A stretch of 64,000 nt of DNA from Thermogemmata fonticola (lineage in GTDB: Bacteria > Planctomycetota > Planctomycetia > Gemmatales > Gemmataceae): assembly GCF_013694095.1 (NCBI RefSeq), contig NZ_JACEFB010000001.1:868001-932000 (forward strand), given 5' to 3'. Positions 50,293 to 56,103 of the stretch are shown in pieces (the first letter of the stretch is position 1; every line of letters starts with the position of its first letter). The notes beneath the pieces were generated by a model. The model was not told where the DNA came from, ran no database searches, and saw only the letters and a program-made list of their open reading frames with translations. The position numbers were made by a program, and so were the translations under genes.

Positions 50293-51600
50293 ATGGAAGT
50301 ATGCTGTCTGGCGGATGGAAGTTTCGACATACCCCGCCGATGGGGTGACACAGCCGTGTCTGTAGATCAGGCTCTAGATCGGCATGATATACGCCGGCGT
50401 TACGGCACGCCTACGGTGTCCGTGCTGATAGCACCAATCGGCAAGGGCGGGCAGCTCTGGCACCGCTGGGCGCAAGGTAAAAACCGGCAGGTCGTGTCCG
50501 TCTCCACCCTCTGCGGGGCGGAGCAACGCTGGCTAGCAACTCTATGCTCCCAGGAGGATTTAACCCGGCTTGCGGTGACACGCCTGGCTCATGAATTGGG
50601 TCAAGATGCAAACGCATTCCGTTGCGAATGGTTCCGCAAGACCCAGGGTGAACGGGAGCAATTCTGGCAATCCGTCTATAAGCAACCGGTGACACCTGCA
50701 TTACGGACCTTGTGCGACCTCGCTGCCAGTGGAGATACCCTATCCCCTCATGACTTAGCCGTAAGGCTTCTCGAATCCTATGCCGATCCTCTCGCCGCTC
50801 TAGCGGATCTAGATTCCATTCTGCGCCCCCTATACCCGGCTGAATCTGGGCCTGTGCTTTTACTCCAACCCGATGTGGCCGTGGATGTAGCTTGGCTTGT
50901 CAATATAGCCCCTGGCCTTACCCAATGGGCCTTCCAAGTACCACAAATTGCCTTGGCAGTCATCGTGCCACCACCTGTATGGCAAAGTTACCTGATGCAT
51001 ACCCCAGAGAGCCGGTCCAAGGCCCTGTTGCGGGAAGGAGCCGTTGAATGTCCCCATTTTTCATCTCATGAGATTCTCCAAAGACTCATCGCAGCAGGAT
51101 GGAGTAACGCGCCTCACCCTGTCGCCCAAGTTTTGGCAGAGCACGGGGCAGATGAAGGCGTCCTGGAAGCCGCCGCTCAATTGGTTCATGCTACGCGAAC
51201 TAATACCGCTCCCGAATTAGCACGTAGCGCGGCCGAACGGTTCCTTTTTGACTTCTTGCAGCTTGTACCTGAAACGGCTGGACGCTGGGAGCTTAACGCC
51301 ACCCTGGATTTCTCGTTTGGTCATCGTCCTATGGAAGTCGATTTGCTTGCGCGCTCCCGACGTCTCGTGATCGAAATCGATGGATACTATCACTTCCGTG
51401 ATCCGGACGCCTATCGCCGCGATCGCAGCAAAGATTATTTGCTCCAGAAACATGGGTATGTTGTTTTGCGATTTTTGGCAGAGGATGTACTCTGTCAATT
51501 GGAACAAGTTCGTGATAGAATTTTGGACGCTTGGCAGCACTTTCAACCAGGAGTTGAAACACAATGGAAGTACAATGCGATGAATTCCGGCAGTGGCTAG
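50293..51600 (+). CDS. DUF559-type PD-(D/E)xK nuclease-like protein
   Basis: A 435-residue protein of two parts. The C-terminal third is a DUF559/Vsr-like endonuclease fold: Asp350 in MEVDLL, Glu361 and Asp363 in VIEIDGYYHF, then RDRSKDYLLQKHGYVVLRF, matching the family E-D-(E)xD-H-D-R-L-G-VLRF series. The N-terminal about 300 residues are unrecognised; APIGKGGQLW resembles a degenerate phosphate loop and VLLLQPDVAVDVAW lies further on. It overlaps the next gene by 37 bp. Together with the winged-helix and HerA proteins it forms an operon, suggesting a DNA-cleaving effector; defence or repair are both possible. Confidence 0.78.
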   Translation: MEVCCLADGSFDIPRRWGDTAVSVDQALDRHDIRRRYGTPTVSVLIAPIGKGGQLWHRWAQGKNRQVVSVSTLCGAEQRWLATLCSQEDLTRLAVTRLAHELGQDANAFRCEWFRKTQGEREQFWQSVYKQPVTPALRTLCDLAASGDTLSPHDLAVRLLESYADPLAALADLDSILRPLYPAESGPVLLLQPDVAVDVAWLVNIAPGLTQWAFQVPQIALAVIVPPPVWQSYLMHTPESRSKALLREGAVECPHFSSHEILQRLIAAGWSNAPHPVAQVLAEHGADEGVLEAAAQLVHATRTNTAPELARSAAERFLFDFLQLVPETAGRWELNATLDFSFGHRPMEVDLLARSRRLVIEIDGYYHFRDPDAYRRDRSKDYLLQKHGYVVLRFLAEDVLCQLEQVRDRILDAWQHFQPGVETQWKYNAMNSGSG

Positions 51601-52334
51601 TGGCTGAATTGCTTCTCGTTCGTATGCTCCTGCCAGTTGGGAAACCGCCAACTCCCAAAGAGGTGCGCGAATCGCTCAGCACCCTTTTGGGTTGGACGGT
51701 AAGCGAGAATACATTGAACCCCATCCGGGACCAGCTCGTCAAAGGCGGCGATCTGCTTCGTACGCCTCGTATGGCATACCGTTTGACGGATACAGGCCGG
51801 CGACGGGCCCTGAAATTCCTCGGTCTCAAAGCCCTACCTCCGCGCTGCAATTGGACCCGACTAATGAGCAAATACCTCCTGCCAGCCCTCATTCGCCATT
51901 GGGAGCAAGATCGCGTTAGCCAAAAGAACTGGTCAAGCCCCGCAAGACCCTTCGTTTTCAATGCGCTGCAACATACTCCACCTTCGAGTTCACAGGCCGA
52001 TGCCAAGATGACATCCATCGACATGCAACAGTTTGCTCAGGCCGTCCTCCGCCACGCCGCTTCTTTACCCCACGAGAAACGCTTCGGCCCTAACAAAGCC
52101 TACATCTCTTGTGTTTGGGAATCCACTCAAGCGGACCCCACTTTTCCCCGCATGAGTTTGGAGACATTCAAGCAACATCTGGTTGAATCTAATCTCCGAG
52201 GTTTCTTGCAATTGAGTCGAGCTGACTTGGTTCAGGCTATGAACCCTGTACTGCTGTCTCAATCCGAGACGCATTACCTCAATGCTCAATTCCACTTCGT
52301 GCTTTTGCAGGAGTTGCACACACGGAGGAGATAA
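51564..52334 (+). CDS. Winged-helix-like protein of unknown function
   Basis: A 256-residue protein in a different frame from its neighbour, beginning with ATG at 51564 (GGAG 10 nt upstream) and overlapping it by 37 bp. Residues about 5-85 look like a winged helix (KPPTPKEVRESLSTLLGW, SENTLNPIRDQLVKGGDLLR, PRMAYRLTDTGRRRALKFL), with the pattern of a small DNA-binding domain. The rest (residues 130-256) is alpha-rich with IDMQQFAQAVLRHAASLPHE. It stops 3 nt before the HerA fusion gene, which has its own GGAGGAG. A regulator or DNA adaptor of the nuclease is plausible but not shown. Confidence 0.7.
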   Translation: MEVQCDEFRQWLVAELLLVRMLLPVGKPPTPKEVRESLSTLLGWTVSENTLNPIRDQLVKGGDLLRTPRMAYRLTDTGRRRALKFLGLKALPPRCNWTRLMSKYLLPALIRHWEQDRVSQKNWSSPARPFVFNALQHTPPSSSQADAKMTSIDMQQFAQAVLRHAASLPHEKRFGPNKAYISCVWESTQADPTFPRMSLETFKQHLVESNLRGFLQLSRADLVQAMNPVLLSQSETHYLNAQFHFVLLQELHTRRR

Positions 52335-52337
52335 ATT

Positions 52338-55300
52338 ATGTCAGTGGCACTTATGACACCTCCGCAAAAATCAGACCCTTGGTTGCAGGCATATTGTGAC
52401 CCGTCTGCTCCAGAAATCTTCGGTTCTATAACAACTCCCGTAGAAGTCTGGAGATATGATCCCTTCGATGTGGAAGCCATCCACCAAGAGGCACGAGAAC
52501 GATTTGCTCAACTTGTGGACCGCGTAATACAGCGCCGGAGCAACCTAAGTCGCGGAGGCATTCTCGTATTACTCGGCGAGTCTGGCAGTGGTAAGACCCA
52601 CCTCATGCGTGCCTTCCGCAACTACGTCCATACCCGGCAAATTGGTTATTGTGCTTATATGCAAATGGCATCCCAAATTAGCAACTACGCCAGATATTTA
52701 CTTAACTCTCTTATTGATAGCCTAGATAGGGCATACAATCCCACTGGTGAAGATTCTACCACATCCTTAGATTATCTCAGCAGACGCTTGGTAGCACAAA
52801 TTCCTAGTATTACAGAAGATGATCGCCGCAAACTTTGTGAGGAAGAGGGAGATCTGTCCCAAACGATTAATCAATATGCGGATCGTCTCACAGCTTTAGA
52901 CCGCTTCCACACTTGCGATTTGGAACTTATCCGTATCTTTCTGCATCTGTACCGAGAGGATCACCGAATTCACAAGCGTGCCGTAATGTGGTTGCGTTGC
53001 CAAAACCTCACCGACTTTGACCGTCATTGGATAGGTCAGGCTGTCCCACGTACCGATGAAGCTGACCCTATGCGGATGCTCTGCGCCGTGGCTCAATTGA
53101 TTGGAGCGATCCAAGATGTGCCCCTCATTTTCTTGATTGATCAACTGGAAGATTTGCAAAATCTTGAACAACCAGTCGAACAATTTCGCCGATTGGTGGA
53201 CACAGTTGCAGCTCTCACTGACCAAGCCTCTAACTTAATCATAGTTCTAGCTTGCTTAGAAGACTATTATCATGCTAATAAACAACATCTCATAAGATCA
53301 AAAATCGATCGCCTAGAGAACCCATACCCTCCTATGCGTTTAATAAGCTTACGTAGTATCGAGGAAATCCGCAAAATCATTGAACGTCGCTTGGAATATC
53401 TTTATCAGGAGAGAGATTTGTCTACTCCGCCTGATTGTTTGTACCCACTTAGGTCAGACGAATTGGAACGCTTGGCTCAGATGAGGACTCGCGACATCCT
53501 CGATCTTCTGCGTAGACATCAGGAGGAATGCCGCAGGACCGGACAATTCGTCTCACTGGTGCAAGTTATCGACAAAAATGGTCCTCCAGATAATGGAAAT
53601 GGAACAGCCGTTCCCCAAGAAAATTGGAACAACTTCCTAGCAAATTTCAGCCCGGAGCAAGGAATACCGGATAACGAAAGAGAACTCGCGCAGTTGCTCG
53701 CCCGCATGATAGCCCTTTGTTCGGCGGAAATGCCGAATGGCGTCCACTTCAGCCAGCCTAAAGCCGATCACAACTGTATTGAGCTAGAAGTCCAATTCGC
53801 CAATCGGAAGGATCAACTCTTAGTCGCTGTGTGTAACGCAAGAGCGCAAGGTGGTGGCTTGCTCCGGCAATTAGAACATGTGCAGCAGCGGGCGAATGGA
53901 AGACCCGTCGCCATTGTGCGAACCTTAGAGTTCCCAAAATCAGGTGAATCGCTCAAGCTCATGGCGACCTTGCTCAGGCAAAATGGCCGCCGCCTACGTT
54001 TGCACGACAGCGAACTGCGTCACATGTTAGCCTTTGAACAGTTTGCCACACAATCTTGCCAACACCCAGCCTTCGCGCGTTGGCGGCGGCAATTTCGTCC
54101 CTTAACCCAACTCTCTTTTTTCCAGGAATTACTCAACCTCGAAGGTATGATTCCACCCCCTCCCCCTCCTCCACCACCACCGCCTCCCCCTCCGCCCTCC
54201 TCCAACACCCTGACCTTAGGCACACGAATCCCCGCTGTTTCTGCATCGGACGTTACGCTCCCCATCGAGGTTCTCACCCAACATACAGCCTTCCTCGGAG
54301 GCACGGGAAGCGGGAAAACCACCGCCGCTCTGAATTTGATCGAGCAATTGTTGGCTCGCGGTATCCCGGCGATTCTGGTCGATCGCAAGGGGGACCTGAG
54401 TCGCTATGCTGACCCCCAAGCGTGGCAAGAGCCGCTAGAGAACAGCAGTGATGCGAGAATGCGAGAGGATTTGCGGCAACGCTTGCAAATCACCCTTTAT
54501 ACCCCCGGTGATATCAACGGCTGCCATCTAGCTTTACCTCTCGTGCCCTTCGGTCACTCGACAGACAATTCTCTTGACCGAGAGAGCTTAGTACGATTTA
54601 CAGCCGCTGCCCTCAGCAAGATGATGAAGCTAGGCGACTCCGCTAACGAGCAGGCTAAATCGGCCATCCTCATCAAGGCCTTGGAACTACTTCTTGCACG
54701 TCACCAACGCGACATAACTATCCCCCTGCTACGAGAATTGATCGCGAGCAAGGACGATGATTTGATCTCCTCCGTAGAAGGAACTTATCGTGAGTCACAC
54801 TACGATAATCTAGCCGAACGCCTACAAACCTTTTGGGTGCGTTATGAGAAACTCTTCAGTGGGCCGAGCCAACTAGATATCGAAACCTTACTCAGACCGC
54901 GTTCGCCTTCCCCAAACGGCCAAGTCCGTCTGACCATCATCTGCACTCAATTCCTGCCCGACGATATTTCCCGGGATTTTTGGATGGCCCAATTCCTGAT
55001 TGCCCTGGGCCGTTGGTGTACCTTTCATCCCAGTTCTCAGTTGCAGGCTGTCCTGCTTTTGGATGAGGCTGATAAATACTTACCGGCCCAGGGGCGTCCT
55101 CCAGCCACGAAGGAACCTTTGGAGCACCTCTTGCGGCGTGCTCGCTCCGCTGGCTTGGGCTTGTTGTTAGCCACTCAAACACCTGGAGATTTCGACTACC
55201 GTTGCCGGGAAAATATCACCACTTGGTTTCTCGGACGGATCACGCAAGAACGAGCATTGCAAAAAGTCCGCACTTTACTGGAAGCCAGCCGGGACAAACA

Positions 55301-55463
55301 GGCCGCCGATCACCTGTCCAGCCTGAAAACTGGCGAATTTTACTTGGCCACATCGCATCAGGAGCCTTTGCGATTCCTCTCACGTTCATCCTGGATTCGC
55401 ACCCAGCAACTTCCTCAAGAGCAAATCCGACAATTGGCGCGCCAAACGTGCCCTTGTGCTTAG
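52338..55463 (+). CDS. Fused AAA (ORC/STAND-like) and HerA/DUF87 ATPase
   Basis: A 1041-residue protein with two P-loop modules. The N-terminal AAA module has Walker A GESGSGKTH (Lys86) and Walker B FLIDQLED (Asp268), with KIDRLENPYPPMRLISLRSI and a helical lid after it, reminiscent of ORC/Cdc6 and STAND ATPases. A middle domain (about 440-600) is unrecognised. Fifteen consecutive prolines (606-620) link it to a HerA/DUF87 translocase with Walker A GTGSGKTT (Lys660), LVDRKGDLSRYA and Walker B LLLDEADKYLP (Asp909, Glu910), then LLATQTPGDFDY. Ribosome site GGAGGAG lies 7 nt upstream. The coding sequence is AT-richer at its 5' part than its neighbours. ssrA follows in the same direction. Confidence 0.8.
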   Translation: MSVALMTPPQKSDPWLQAYCDPSAPEIFGSITTPVEVWRYDPFDVEAIHQEARERFAQLVDRVIQRRSNLSRGGILVLLGESGSGKTHLMRAFRNYVHTRQIGYCAYMQMASQISNYARYLLNSLIDSLDRAYNPTGEDSTTSLDYLSRRLVAQIPSITEDDRRKLCEEEGDLSQTINQYADRLTALDRFHTCDLELIRIFLHLYREDHRIHKRAVMWLRCQNLTDFDRHWIGQAVPRTDEADPMRMLCAVAQLIGAIQDVPLIFLIDQLEDLQNLEQPVEQFRRLVDTVAALTDQASNLIIVLACLEDYYHANKQHLIRSKIDRLENPYPPMRLISLRSIEEIRKIIERRLEYLYQERDLSTPPDCLYPLRSDELERLAQMRTRDILDLLRRHQEECRRTGQFVSLVQVIDKNGPPDNGNGTAVPQENWNNFLANFSPEQGIPDNERELAQLLARMIALCSAEMPNGVHFSQPKADHNCIELEVQFANRKDQLLVAVCNARAQGGGLLRQLEHVQQRANGRPVAIVRTLEFPKSGESLKLMATLLRQNGRRLRLHDSELRHMLAFEQFATQSCQHPAFARWRRQFRPLTQLSFFQELLNLEGMIPPPPPPPPPPPPPPPSSNTLTLGTRIPAVSASDVTLPIEVLTQHTAFLGGTGSGKTTAALNLIEQLLARGIPAILVDRKGDLSRYADPQAWQEPLENSSDARMREDLRQRLQITLYTPGDINGCHLALPLVPFGHSTDNSLDRESLVRFTAAALSKMMKLGDSANEQAKSAILIKALELLLARHQRDITIPLLRELIASKDDDLISSVEGTYRESHYDNLAERLQTFWVRYEKLFSGPSQLDIETLLRPRSPSPNGQVRLTIICTQFLPDDISRDFWMAQFLIALGRWCTFHPSSQLQAVLLLDEADKYLPAQGRPPATKEPLEHLLRRARSAGLGLLLATQTPGDFDYRCRENITTWFLGRITQERALQKVRTLLEASRDKQAADHLSSLKTGEFYLATSHQEPLRFLSRSSWIRTQQLPQEQIRQLARQTCPCA

Positions 55464-55555: not shown

Positions 55556-55960
55556 GGGGGCGAAAGGTTTCGACCGGGCGCTGAAAGTGATCGGCTGCGT
55601 GTCGTGGTTGATCAGCAGGCCACGTAAAAAGCTGATCGCACCAACCTGCCGAACCGCAGGTTTCTCTCGCGGCTTAATGCAGCCCGCGACCGCCTTTGCT
55701 CCTCGCCTGAGGGAGTAAATAGCGGCTGGCAATTCAGGCTCGCGATCGTCTGAGGACTGGTCCAATCACCAGTCCGCCGCGGGGGCGACGATCGCTAGAT
55801 TCTCTGCCCGCTAGCGACCTTGTGATCCTGTTCGTCGGAGCACGAGGGAGCGAACACGGAGGGAAGCCTTACGGACAGCCTTCCGAAAAAAGACGAACTA
55901 CACACGTAGATGCCGTCATGGACACGCACCGGGACGCGGGTTCAATTCCCGCCGCCTCCA
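55556..55960 (+). ncRNA. ssrA: Transfer-messenger RNA (tmRNA)
   Basis: A 405-nt one-piece tmRNA that rescues stalled ribosomes. The 5' end GGGGGCG pairs with CGCCTCC at the 3' end to make the acceptor stem, with the discriminator A following and CCA not encoded. The 3' T-arm reads GGACGCGGGTTCAATTCCCGCC, as in all tmRNAs, and the 5' end reads GAAAGGTTTCGACC. The tag reading frame at 55648-55677 gives Ala-Glu-Pro-Gln-Val-Ser-Leu-Ala-Ala then TAA, ending in the LAA degron recognised by Clp-type proteases; clpX is in the same window. Confidence 0.95.
55648..55677 (+). other. tmRNA tag-peptide reading frame (AEPQVSLAA)
   Basis: Within ssrA, GCC is the resume codon and the frame runs to TAA at 55675-55677, encoding AEPQVSLAA. 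The terminal Leu-Ala-Ala is the conserved degron. The Ala-Glu start fits planctomycete tags as I recall them. The frame just upstream is closed by TGA at 55633-55635. Confidence 0.85.
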
Positions 55961-56103
55961 CTGATCACCCACTGAGTAAACTCTGGGGAAACTGTCAACT
56001 TAGCATATCAGGAGTTTAGACCCGCATTGGCGATATGACTCACACTTCCCGAACCTTATCCGGTCACTTGATTCCTAATGAGACCTGCACTGCACCTGCA
56101 AGC

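What the first reader, a model, noticed from the sequence alone, without database searches (positions are those of the whole stretch)
52338..55463. Two different P-loop ATPases joined by a 15-proline hinge in one chain
The chain has an ORC/STAND-like AAA module (Lys86, Asp268), an unknown middle domain, an uninterrupted run of 15 prolines (codons mixed, so not a simple repeat) and a HerA module (Lys660, Asp909-Glu910). Both Walker sets look intact. Sensor-type ATPase plus motor in one polypeptide suggests switch-like control of translocation. The proline run will demand EF-P for translation.
Basis: partly seen in the sequence, partly recalled or inferred. Interest (0 to 1): 0.55.

Follow-up and report, generated by a model that had tools for sequence, protein, structure and literature searches.

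The report
ORC–HerA double ATPase with nuclease
A bacterial protein that really does join an ORC-like switch ATPase to a HerA-type DNA-pumping ATPase in one chain, encoded next to a DNA-cutting enzyme; it most likely belongs to a predicted but untested class of anti-invader (phage or plasmid) defence systems, and its striking run of 15 prolines is only a local version of a variable, floppy linker.

Summary
In detail: ORF 52338-55463 (+, 1041 aa) has K86, D268, P606-620, K660 and D909-E910. The fusion is no artefact: I aligned 16 fused proteins (Planctomycetota, Actinomycetota, Alphaproteobacteria) and these Walker residues are kept in 16 of 16. Three refinements. (1) The AAA Walker B reads D-Q, not D-E, in 16 of 16, with an acid at +3; it may bind ATP but hydrolyse slowly (inference). 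(2) The "unknown" middle domain, folded alone (pLDDT 83), resembles PD-(D/E)XK nucleases (best Z 7.2, so moderate) but lacks (D/E)xK in 16 of 16: a probable dead REase. (3) The 15-proline run is not conserved: the linker is 27-117 residues, proline-rich, with runs of at most 4 elsewhere. The gene is the third of an operon: DUF559 nuclease, winged-helix-like protein, ATPase. This matches the predicted "Orc/CDC6-HerA/FtsK capture" anti-invader systems (PMC10853773). Most likely a restriction machine in which the AAA part licenses the HerA pump to feed DNA to the nuclease. Defence is inferred, not shown. New member of a known, untested kind; interest about 0.35.

The parts
50293..51600 (+). gene 1 of the operon: 435-aa protein with C-terminal DUF559/MTES_1575 PD-(D/E)XK nuclease domain (aa 349-413); its N-terminal ~300 aa are unassigned
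   Evidence: DUF559 E 9.4e-11, 9 of 9 members of A2 match DUF559 and MTES_1575; D350, E361, D363 kept in 13 of 13; PDB profile hits 3hrl and 3r3p
51564..52334 (+). gene 2: 256-aa winged-helix-like protein, about 100 aa shorter in the middle than relatives; overlaps the end of gene 1
   Evidence: present in 16 of 16 fused-ATPase loci; winged-helix label weak: Mrr_N in 3 of 9 members at best E 0.064, DUF6293_C winged helix E 0.0011 in the Methylobacterium member
52324..52330 (+). GGAGGAG, ribosome-binding-site-like, inside the end of gene 2 and 7 bases before the ATG of gene 3
   Evidence: direct reading
52338..55463 (+). gene 3: 1041-aa AAA - dead REase - proline linker - HerA ATPase
52386..53591 (+). 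ORC/STAND-like AAA module (aa 17-418)
   Evidence: AAA_22/AAA_16; RdrA, ORC/Cdc6, TnsC folds
52575..52598 (+). Walker A 1, GESGSGKT, K86
   Evidence: 16 of 16
53127..53153 (+). Walker B 1, D268-Q269-x-E271: Gln in place of the catalytic Glu, acid at +3
   Evidence: D and Q 16 of 16, +3 E in 8 and D in 8
53547..53630 (+). linker 1 between AAA and middle domain, variable
53616..54137 (+). middle domain (aa 427-600), PD-(D/E)XK-like without catalytic motif
   Evidence: AF2 of this part alone pLDDT 83, pTM 0.80; top fold matches EndoMS, EcoT38I, SfsA, BspD6I, Cap4, Z 6-7; no (D/E)xK in 16 of 16
54153..54197 (+). 15 proline codons (aa 606-620), linker 2
   Evidence: not conserved
54210..55460 (+). 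HerA/FtsK-type motor (aa 625-1041), no room for a HAS barrel
   Evidence: mad8 E 1e-23, HerA models; profile hits to 8xau, 8wiv, 9c1m, 8ziq
54297..54320 (+). Walker A 2, GGTGSGKT, K660
   Evidence: 16 of 16
55062..55067 (+). Walker B 2, D909-E910
   Evidence: 16 of 16

Best explanation
The chain is the motor of a three-gene restriction-type system of the predicted 'Orc/CDC6-HerA/FtsK capture' class. Shown here by sequence: the fusion, the conserved ATP sites, the operon, the active-site-bearing nuclease, the dead REase-like middle domain. Inferred steps: the HerA halves form a hexameric ring that pumps double-stranded DNA; the ORC/STAND-like halves bind ATP when the winged-helix-like protein and the dead REase domain have met foreign or otherwise licensed DNA, and because their Walker B lacks the catalytic glutamate they stay ATP-bound and act as a latch rather than a motor; the flexible proline-rich linker lets this head sit above the ring in place of the HAS barrel that canonical HerA uses; the ring then feeds DNA to the DUF559 nuclease. 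The likely purpose is to destroy invading DNA.
For: All five parts named for the class in PMC10853773 (Orc/CDC6 ATPase, inactive REase next to it, active REase, HerA/FtsK, wHTH) are found here, with the wHTH weakest. Operon order nuclease - winged-helix-like - ATPase at 13 of the 16 loci examined, the second gene at 16 of 16. The three proteins diverge together: nuclease-ATPase r 0.93 over 13 loci, 0.72 (permutation P 0.011) within the near clade alone. Patchy spread: fused protein in 5 of 25 genomes of the family sample, not in the same-genus genome G001, at least 7 of 392 genomes of the phylum sample, and on records of Methylobacterium, Nonomuraea and Tsukamurella. HerA-nuclease pairs are proven anti-phage effectors in other families (PMC11291478, abstract read). 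A split relative in G010 has the AAA, a winged-helix-gene relative and HerA as three genes, HerA carrying a Cas4-like nuclease: the parts work as one set and the nuclease is exchangeable.
Against: No experiment. No marked defence island: the neighbours in the window are an EamA transporter, tmRNA and LolD/LolE genes. Defence-type neighbours elsewhere are anecdotal and without control: VapBC by the Tsukamurella operon, an HsdS-like ORF by G002 (my reading of the translation). Three of 16 fused loci have no nuclease gene found nearby (G034, G357, G322), and the G357 genome has none by whole-genome search. PADLOC and NCBIfam hold no model for the whole system. The HerA half of the structure model is unreliable (pLDDT under 50). 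REase fold matches are all under Z 8 with unrelated carboxyltransferases from rank 9.
Confidence: 0.62

Rival explanations
1. A DNA-repair machine: a HerA-nuclease end-resection pair like archaeal HerA-NurA, with the ORC-like head loading it at breaks or stalled forks of the host's own chromosome.
For: HerA plus PD-(D/E)XK nuclease is the HerA-NurA logic (PMC12977600, abstract start seen); ORC/Cdc6 and clamp-loader-like AAA folds are loaders; linkage to housekeeping genes in the window.
Against: Patchy in close relatives (5 of 25 in the family sample) and spread over three phyla, unlike a housekeeping repair gene; many of the genomes carry a separate, more widely found ~830-aa HerA-like ORF.
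Confidence: 0.17
2. Transfer or maintenance machinery of a mobile element: an ORC/TnsC-like ATPase and a T4SS-coupling-protein-like pump that move the element's own DNA.
For: TrwB_AAD_bind matched in 13 of 13; TnsC folds among the matches; tRNA, tmRNA or toxin-antitoxin genes near some loci.
Against: In the ORF lists that I read around the loci I saw no relaxase, integrase or T4SS gene, and one IS200-like transposase ORF downstream in L060 (by eye, no systematic scan). No match in 50,697 phage records for the distant-clade protein.
Confidence: 0.13
3. The 15-proline run is itself functional: a rigid polyproline-II rod of fixed length or an EF-P-dependent translation brake that tunes how much of the HerA half is made.
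For: Uninterrupted run with mixed codons; EF-P gene present; the linker is proline-rich in all 16, 6-28 prolines; three near relatives have a run of 7 at the other linker.
Against: Position and length of runs are not kept: longest run 15 here, 1-4 in the other 15 at the same linker. Other frames of this genome have runs of 11-17, so it may be a local expansion habit.
Confidence: 0.08
4. Assembly or sequencing join of two genes.
For: The GC content differs along the gene (AAA 46.7%, HerA 54.8%).
Against: Same fusion in 16 aligned proteins from independent genomes; open frame without stops.
Confidence: 0.005

Closest known systems
Orc/CDC6-HerA/FtsK capture systems (predicted; PMC10853773, sections 22 and 26 read)
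   Same: Orc/CDC6-type AAA, inactive REase right after it, HerA/FtsK motor, separate active REase, winged-helix protein; parts fused in varying ways; predicted anti-invader role
   Different: The active nuclease here is of the DUF559/MTES_1575 type, which that text does not name; AAA, dead REase and HerA lie in one chain; no clear winged helix after the dead REase; HerA clade (their 4/5) not assigned here
Anti-phage HerA-DUF4297 and HerA-SIR2 pairs
   Same: HerA ring plus effector; HerA profiles and solved HerA hexamers are the best matches of the C-terminal half
   Different: No HAS barrel, an AAA-REase head instead; other nuclease; one more gene; two ATPases in one chain
MADS (Mad8 motor)
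   Same: Mad8 is the best PADLOC match of the motor in this protein, in L057 and in the Tsukamurella protein (E 1e-21 to 1e-26)
   Different: No other MADS component matched convincingly in the three proteins tested (mad3 only at the P-loop, E 4e-6)
BREX BrxC, RADAR RdrA (ORC/STAND-type defence ATPases)
   Same: AAA fold (RdrA Z 15.3; BrxC in Foldseek list; BrxC_BrxD Pfam in 3 of 13)
   Different: Fused to a HerA motor; no PglZ, BrxX or RdrB-like gene among the three operon genes
BREX-related capture (BRC) systems (PMC12839542, section 36 read)
   Same: ORC/Cdc6 ATPase, HerA/FtsK and a nuclease together
   Different: BRC has PglZ, STAND, DUF4007, GNAT and TGT as further parts; none is in this three-gene operon

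Membership tests
Orc/CDC6-HerA/FtsK capture systems (PMC10853773) | Orc/CDC6-type AAA+ ATPase | tested here: met
   ORC/Cdc6 rows at Z 11-13 over aa 17-418, RdrA Z 15.3; AAA_16/AAA_22 13 of 13
Orc/CDC6-HerA/FtsK capture systems (PMC10853773) | inactive REase directly after the AAA core | tested here: met
   middle domain alone: 7 of the 8 best VIA rows are PD-(D/E)XK nucleases and the eighth, SfsA, is a PD-(D/E)XK-like protein by recall; Z 6.1-7.2, so moderate; Foldseek best hit EcoT38I E 5.7e-3; (D/E)xK absent 16 of 16
Orc/CDC6-HerA/FtsK capture systems (PMC10853773) | C-terminal wHTH of Orc/CDC6 after the inactive REase | tested here: inconclusive
   three helices follow the REase core without a clear wing in the model
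Orc/CDC6-HerA/FtsK capture systems (PMC10853773) | active REase of one of two families (one shared with AbiJ) | tested here: inconclusive
   an REase with D350, E361, D363 in 13 of 13 is present, of DUF559/MTES_1575 type; whether that is one of the two families is not stated in the text read
Orc/CDC6-HerA/FtsK capture systems (PMC10853773) | HerA/FtsK motor domain | tested here: met
Orc/CDC6-HerA/FtsK capture systems (PMC10853773) | wHTH protein in the operon | tested here: inconclusive
   a second gene at 16 of 16 loci, winged-helix assignment weak
Orc/CDC6-HerA/FtsK capture systems (PMC10853773) | HerA of their clade 2, 4 or 5 | not tested
Canonical HerA (NurA, DUF4297, SIR2 partners) | N-terminal HAS barrel before the P-loop | tested here: not met
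   full-length HerA models are matched only from profile position 129-201 on (for example 129-179 of 487, 158-214 of 579) and about 26 residues lie between the linker end and Walker A
Canonical HerA (NurA, DUF4297, SIR2 partners) | NurA, DUF4297 or SIR2 partner gene | tested here: not met
   partner is DUF559; no such match in the operon proteins
MADS | further mad genes beside mad8 | tested here: not met
   PADLOC scan of the three operon proteins; definition of MADS as an eight-gene system is recalled
STAND NTPases | Walker B with acid at +3 instead of the +1 glutamate (recalled) | tested here: met
   D-Q-h-[DE] in 16 of 16
STAND NTPases | C-terminal superstructure-forming repeats (recalled) | tested here: inconclusive
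   no repeat family in Pfam hits; the C-terminal part is REase-like and HerA

The most novel reading that the evidence does not exclude
A single-chain two-ATPase restriction motor whose ORC/STAND-like head is naturally locked for hydrolysis (Walker B Glu to Gln in the whole family), so that ATP binding is a one-way latch; together with a dead REase it replaced the HAS barrel as the platform that licenses the HerA ring and docks exchangeable nucleases (DUF559 here, Cas4-like in the split relative).
Probability: 0.2. Interest if true: 0.6.

Novelty: new member of a known kind. Interest (0 to 1): 0.35.

Why it matters
The class to which this belongs was proposed from gene neighbourhoods; in my searches I saw no experiment on a member. 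This family gives a compact, three-gene, single-chain version with clear predictions: the AAA head should bind but hardly hydrolyse ATP, the middle domain should bind but not cut DNA, and the DUF559 protein should be the nuclease. It would show how a switch ATPase gates a DNA pump in bacterial immunity.

Tried and rejected
Assembly join: rejected, 16 fused homologues. Dpd system (DpdG/DpdH), my first guess from gene sizes: no DpdG or DpdH model matched in NCBIfam or PADLOC; the paper search for those names gave only unrelated papers among the 20 listed of 183.

Nuclease N-terminus as a degenerate AAA/STAND domain: a collinear profile match (P 0.0094 over 210 columns with 9 and 13 sequences; P 0.078 with the whole profiles) vanished with more sequences (P 0.36, 23 columns). 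Not claimed.

Island or empty site: G001 (same genus) keeps LolE and LolD at 83% (LolE) but then a different gene and no tmRNA in the fetched 13.5 kb, so no clean empty site. GC is low over the AAA half, but two of the seven 1-kb windows at or under 49% lie in the neighbouring LolE gene, so transfer is not shown by composition.

Distribution outside Planctomycetota: the window protein itself found only HerA-half matches on plasmid records; the distant-clade protein found three near-full ones. Viral contigs: 11 loci, all matching parts of the HerA half only. Sequence profiles of the middle domain against the PDB gave only short matches to designed TIM barrels, taken as chance. MADS paper: not held in the library (one search lists two other papers). 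VIA rows cover the AAA and middle domains; no statement is made on folds absent from those lists.
Full report
Observation. ORF 52338-55463 (+) is open, 1041 aa, with GESGSGKT (K86), IDQLED (D268), fifteen prolines (606-620), GGTGSGKT (K660) and LLLDEAD (D909-E910) as described. Pfam gives AAA_22/AAA_16 for the first half and DUF87/HerA_C for the last; PADLOC's best model for the motor is mad8, E 1e-23, then HerA models.

The fusion is real. tblastn-type searches found fused relatives in 5 of 25 genomes of the family sample (G000, G002, G006, G017, G024, 41 genomes in all) and in at least 7 of 392 of a phylum sample (only two candidates per genome scored; fusion of the distant ones checked by alignment), in Aquisphaera insulae, and on records of Methylobacterium aquaticum, Nonomuraea gerenzanensis and Tsukamurella tyrosinosolvens. 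I aligned 16: a near clade of 8 and a distant clade of 8. K86, D268, R325, R351, K660, D909, E910 and R936 are identical in 16 of 16. Only fused proteins entered that count. Left out of it: Planctomycetales bacterium 71-10 and Paludisphaera soli have the AAA and middle domain only, ending at linker 2; G390 has a lone HerA-like ORF on another contig; G010 has the parts as separate genes. Paludisphaera also has a separate distant-clade match with a 1328-codon frame, and a nuclease match nearby.

Three corrections to the reading. First, the AAA Walker B is D-Q in 16 of 16, with E (8) or D (8) at +3. In engineered AAA proteins Glu to Gln at this place traps ATP (recalled knowledge); the +3 acid is a STAND habit (recalled). 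So the head may be a slow or non-hydrolysing latch; this is inference. Second, the middle domain: in the full-length model (4 sequences, mean pLDDT 53) the first 600 residues are fair and the HerA half is not usable. Folded alone it gives pLDDT 83, pTM 0.80, with helix, strands, helix, strand in REase order. VIA-align's best rows are EndoMS 7.2 (96 aligned, 3.2 A), EcoT38I 6.6 (126, 5.5 A), SfsA 6.4 (110, 3.6 A), R.BspD6I small subunit 6.3 (128, 4.2 A), Cap4 6.2 (131, 4.6 A). These are moderate values: the tool warns that Z under 8 may mean only a common arrangement, and acetyl-CoA carboxyltransferases appear from rank 9. Foldseek's best hit is EcoT38I at E 5.7e-3, none under 0.001. At strand 3, where (D/E)xK should be, the near clade has A/G-x-C and the distant clade R-x-L/I/V, so no member could cut in the usual way. 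Third, linker 2 is 27 to 117 residues with 6 to 28 prolines; the longest run is 15 here and 1 to 4 in the other 15; linker 1 has runs of 7 in three relatives. Proline runs of 11 to 17 occur in three other regions of this genome. EF-P is present.

The operon. Upstream lie a 435-aa protein with a DUF559 nuclease domain and a 256-aa winged-helix-like protein, same strand, overlapping or 3 bases apart, with GGAGGAG before the ATPase. At 16 fused loci the second gene is present in 16 and the nuclease gene in 13; missing in G034, G322 and G357, and G357 has none in its genome by the search used. Nuclease residues D350, E361, D363 are kept in 13 of 13. Pairwise identities of the three proteins correlate: nuclease-ATPase 0.93, second gene-ATPase 0.94 over 13 loci; within seven near-clade loci 0.72 (P 0.011) and 0.83 (P 0.009). 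In Tsukamurella the record itself annotates DUF559 - hypothetical - DUF87, beside VapBC and amid ribosomal-protein genes. In G010 the AAA protein (740 aa) and HerA (746 aa) are separate; the HerA protein carries a Cas4-like region (PADLOC Cas4 E 1.5e-7) and the third gene matches the Tsukamurella second gene at E 8e-7.

Mechanism. AAA fold matches are RdrA of RADAR, ORC/Cdc6, TnsC and MuB and BrxC: DNA- or RNA-loading switch ATPases of defence, replication and transposition. HerA matches are anti-phage HerA rings. Canonical HerA has a HAS barrel before the P-loop; here full-length HerA models match only from position 129 on or later, and the AAA-REase head stands in its place. I propose a ring that pumps DNA to the DUF559 nuclease, gated by an ATP-bound head. 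Shown: parts, conservation, co-occurrence. Inferred: ring, gating, cutting, defence.

Comparison with what is known. PMC10853773 (passages, sections 22 and 26 read) describes mobile neighbourhoods with an Orc/CDC6 ATPase, an inactive REase placed after the AAA core, an active REase, HerA/FtsK and a wHTH, in one or several polypeptides, and proposes an anti-invader role. That is this architecture. It does not mention DUF559 or Planctomycetes in its main text; its supplement was not read. PMC12839542 (passages and section 36) describes a richer BREX-related cousin. PMC11291478 (abstract and outline) proves HerA plus nuclease as an anti-phage complex. Searches for DUF559 with DUF87 gave 0 papers. 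I therefore file it as a new member of a known, predicted kind, with three membership rows inconclusive and one not tested.

Verdict.

Noticed in passing
window 55556-55961 (+): The tmRNA gene starts 93 bases after the ATPase stop codon. A gene with a 15-proline stall-prone run next to the ribosome-rescue RNA is probably coincidence. In the same-genus genome G001 the syntenic LolE-LolD locus has no tmRNA found in the fetched stretch.
   Followed up: partly
L059 7546-13679: Split version in G010: Cas4-like nuclease fused to HerA, separate AAA gene, and a 557-aa coiled-coil-rich third gene related to the winged-helix-like gene.
   Followed up: partly
L022 9980-11803, L023 9971-11791: AAA plus dead-REase proteins that end exactly at linker 2, with the winged-helix-like gene but no HerA or nuclease beside them; either decay or a HerA-free variant.
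   Followed up: partly
L062 7923-9128: Lone 401-aa HerA-like ORF in G390, whose genome also has a complete distant-clade fusion on another contig.
   Followed up: no
L099 (G000 C4, near 244402-244460): A long run of C in a 666-codon stop-to-stop frame gives 16 prolines; could be a phase-variable site or an assembly problem.
   Followed up: no
window 51564-52334: The second gene lacks about 100 internal residues found in its relatives (256 against 343-381 aa in the near clade).
   Followed up: no
window 50293-51597, aa 1-300: The N-terminal two thirds of the nuclease protein has no assigned family; the distant clade is shorter there.
   Followed up: partly
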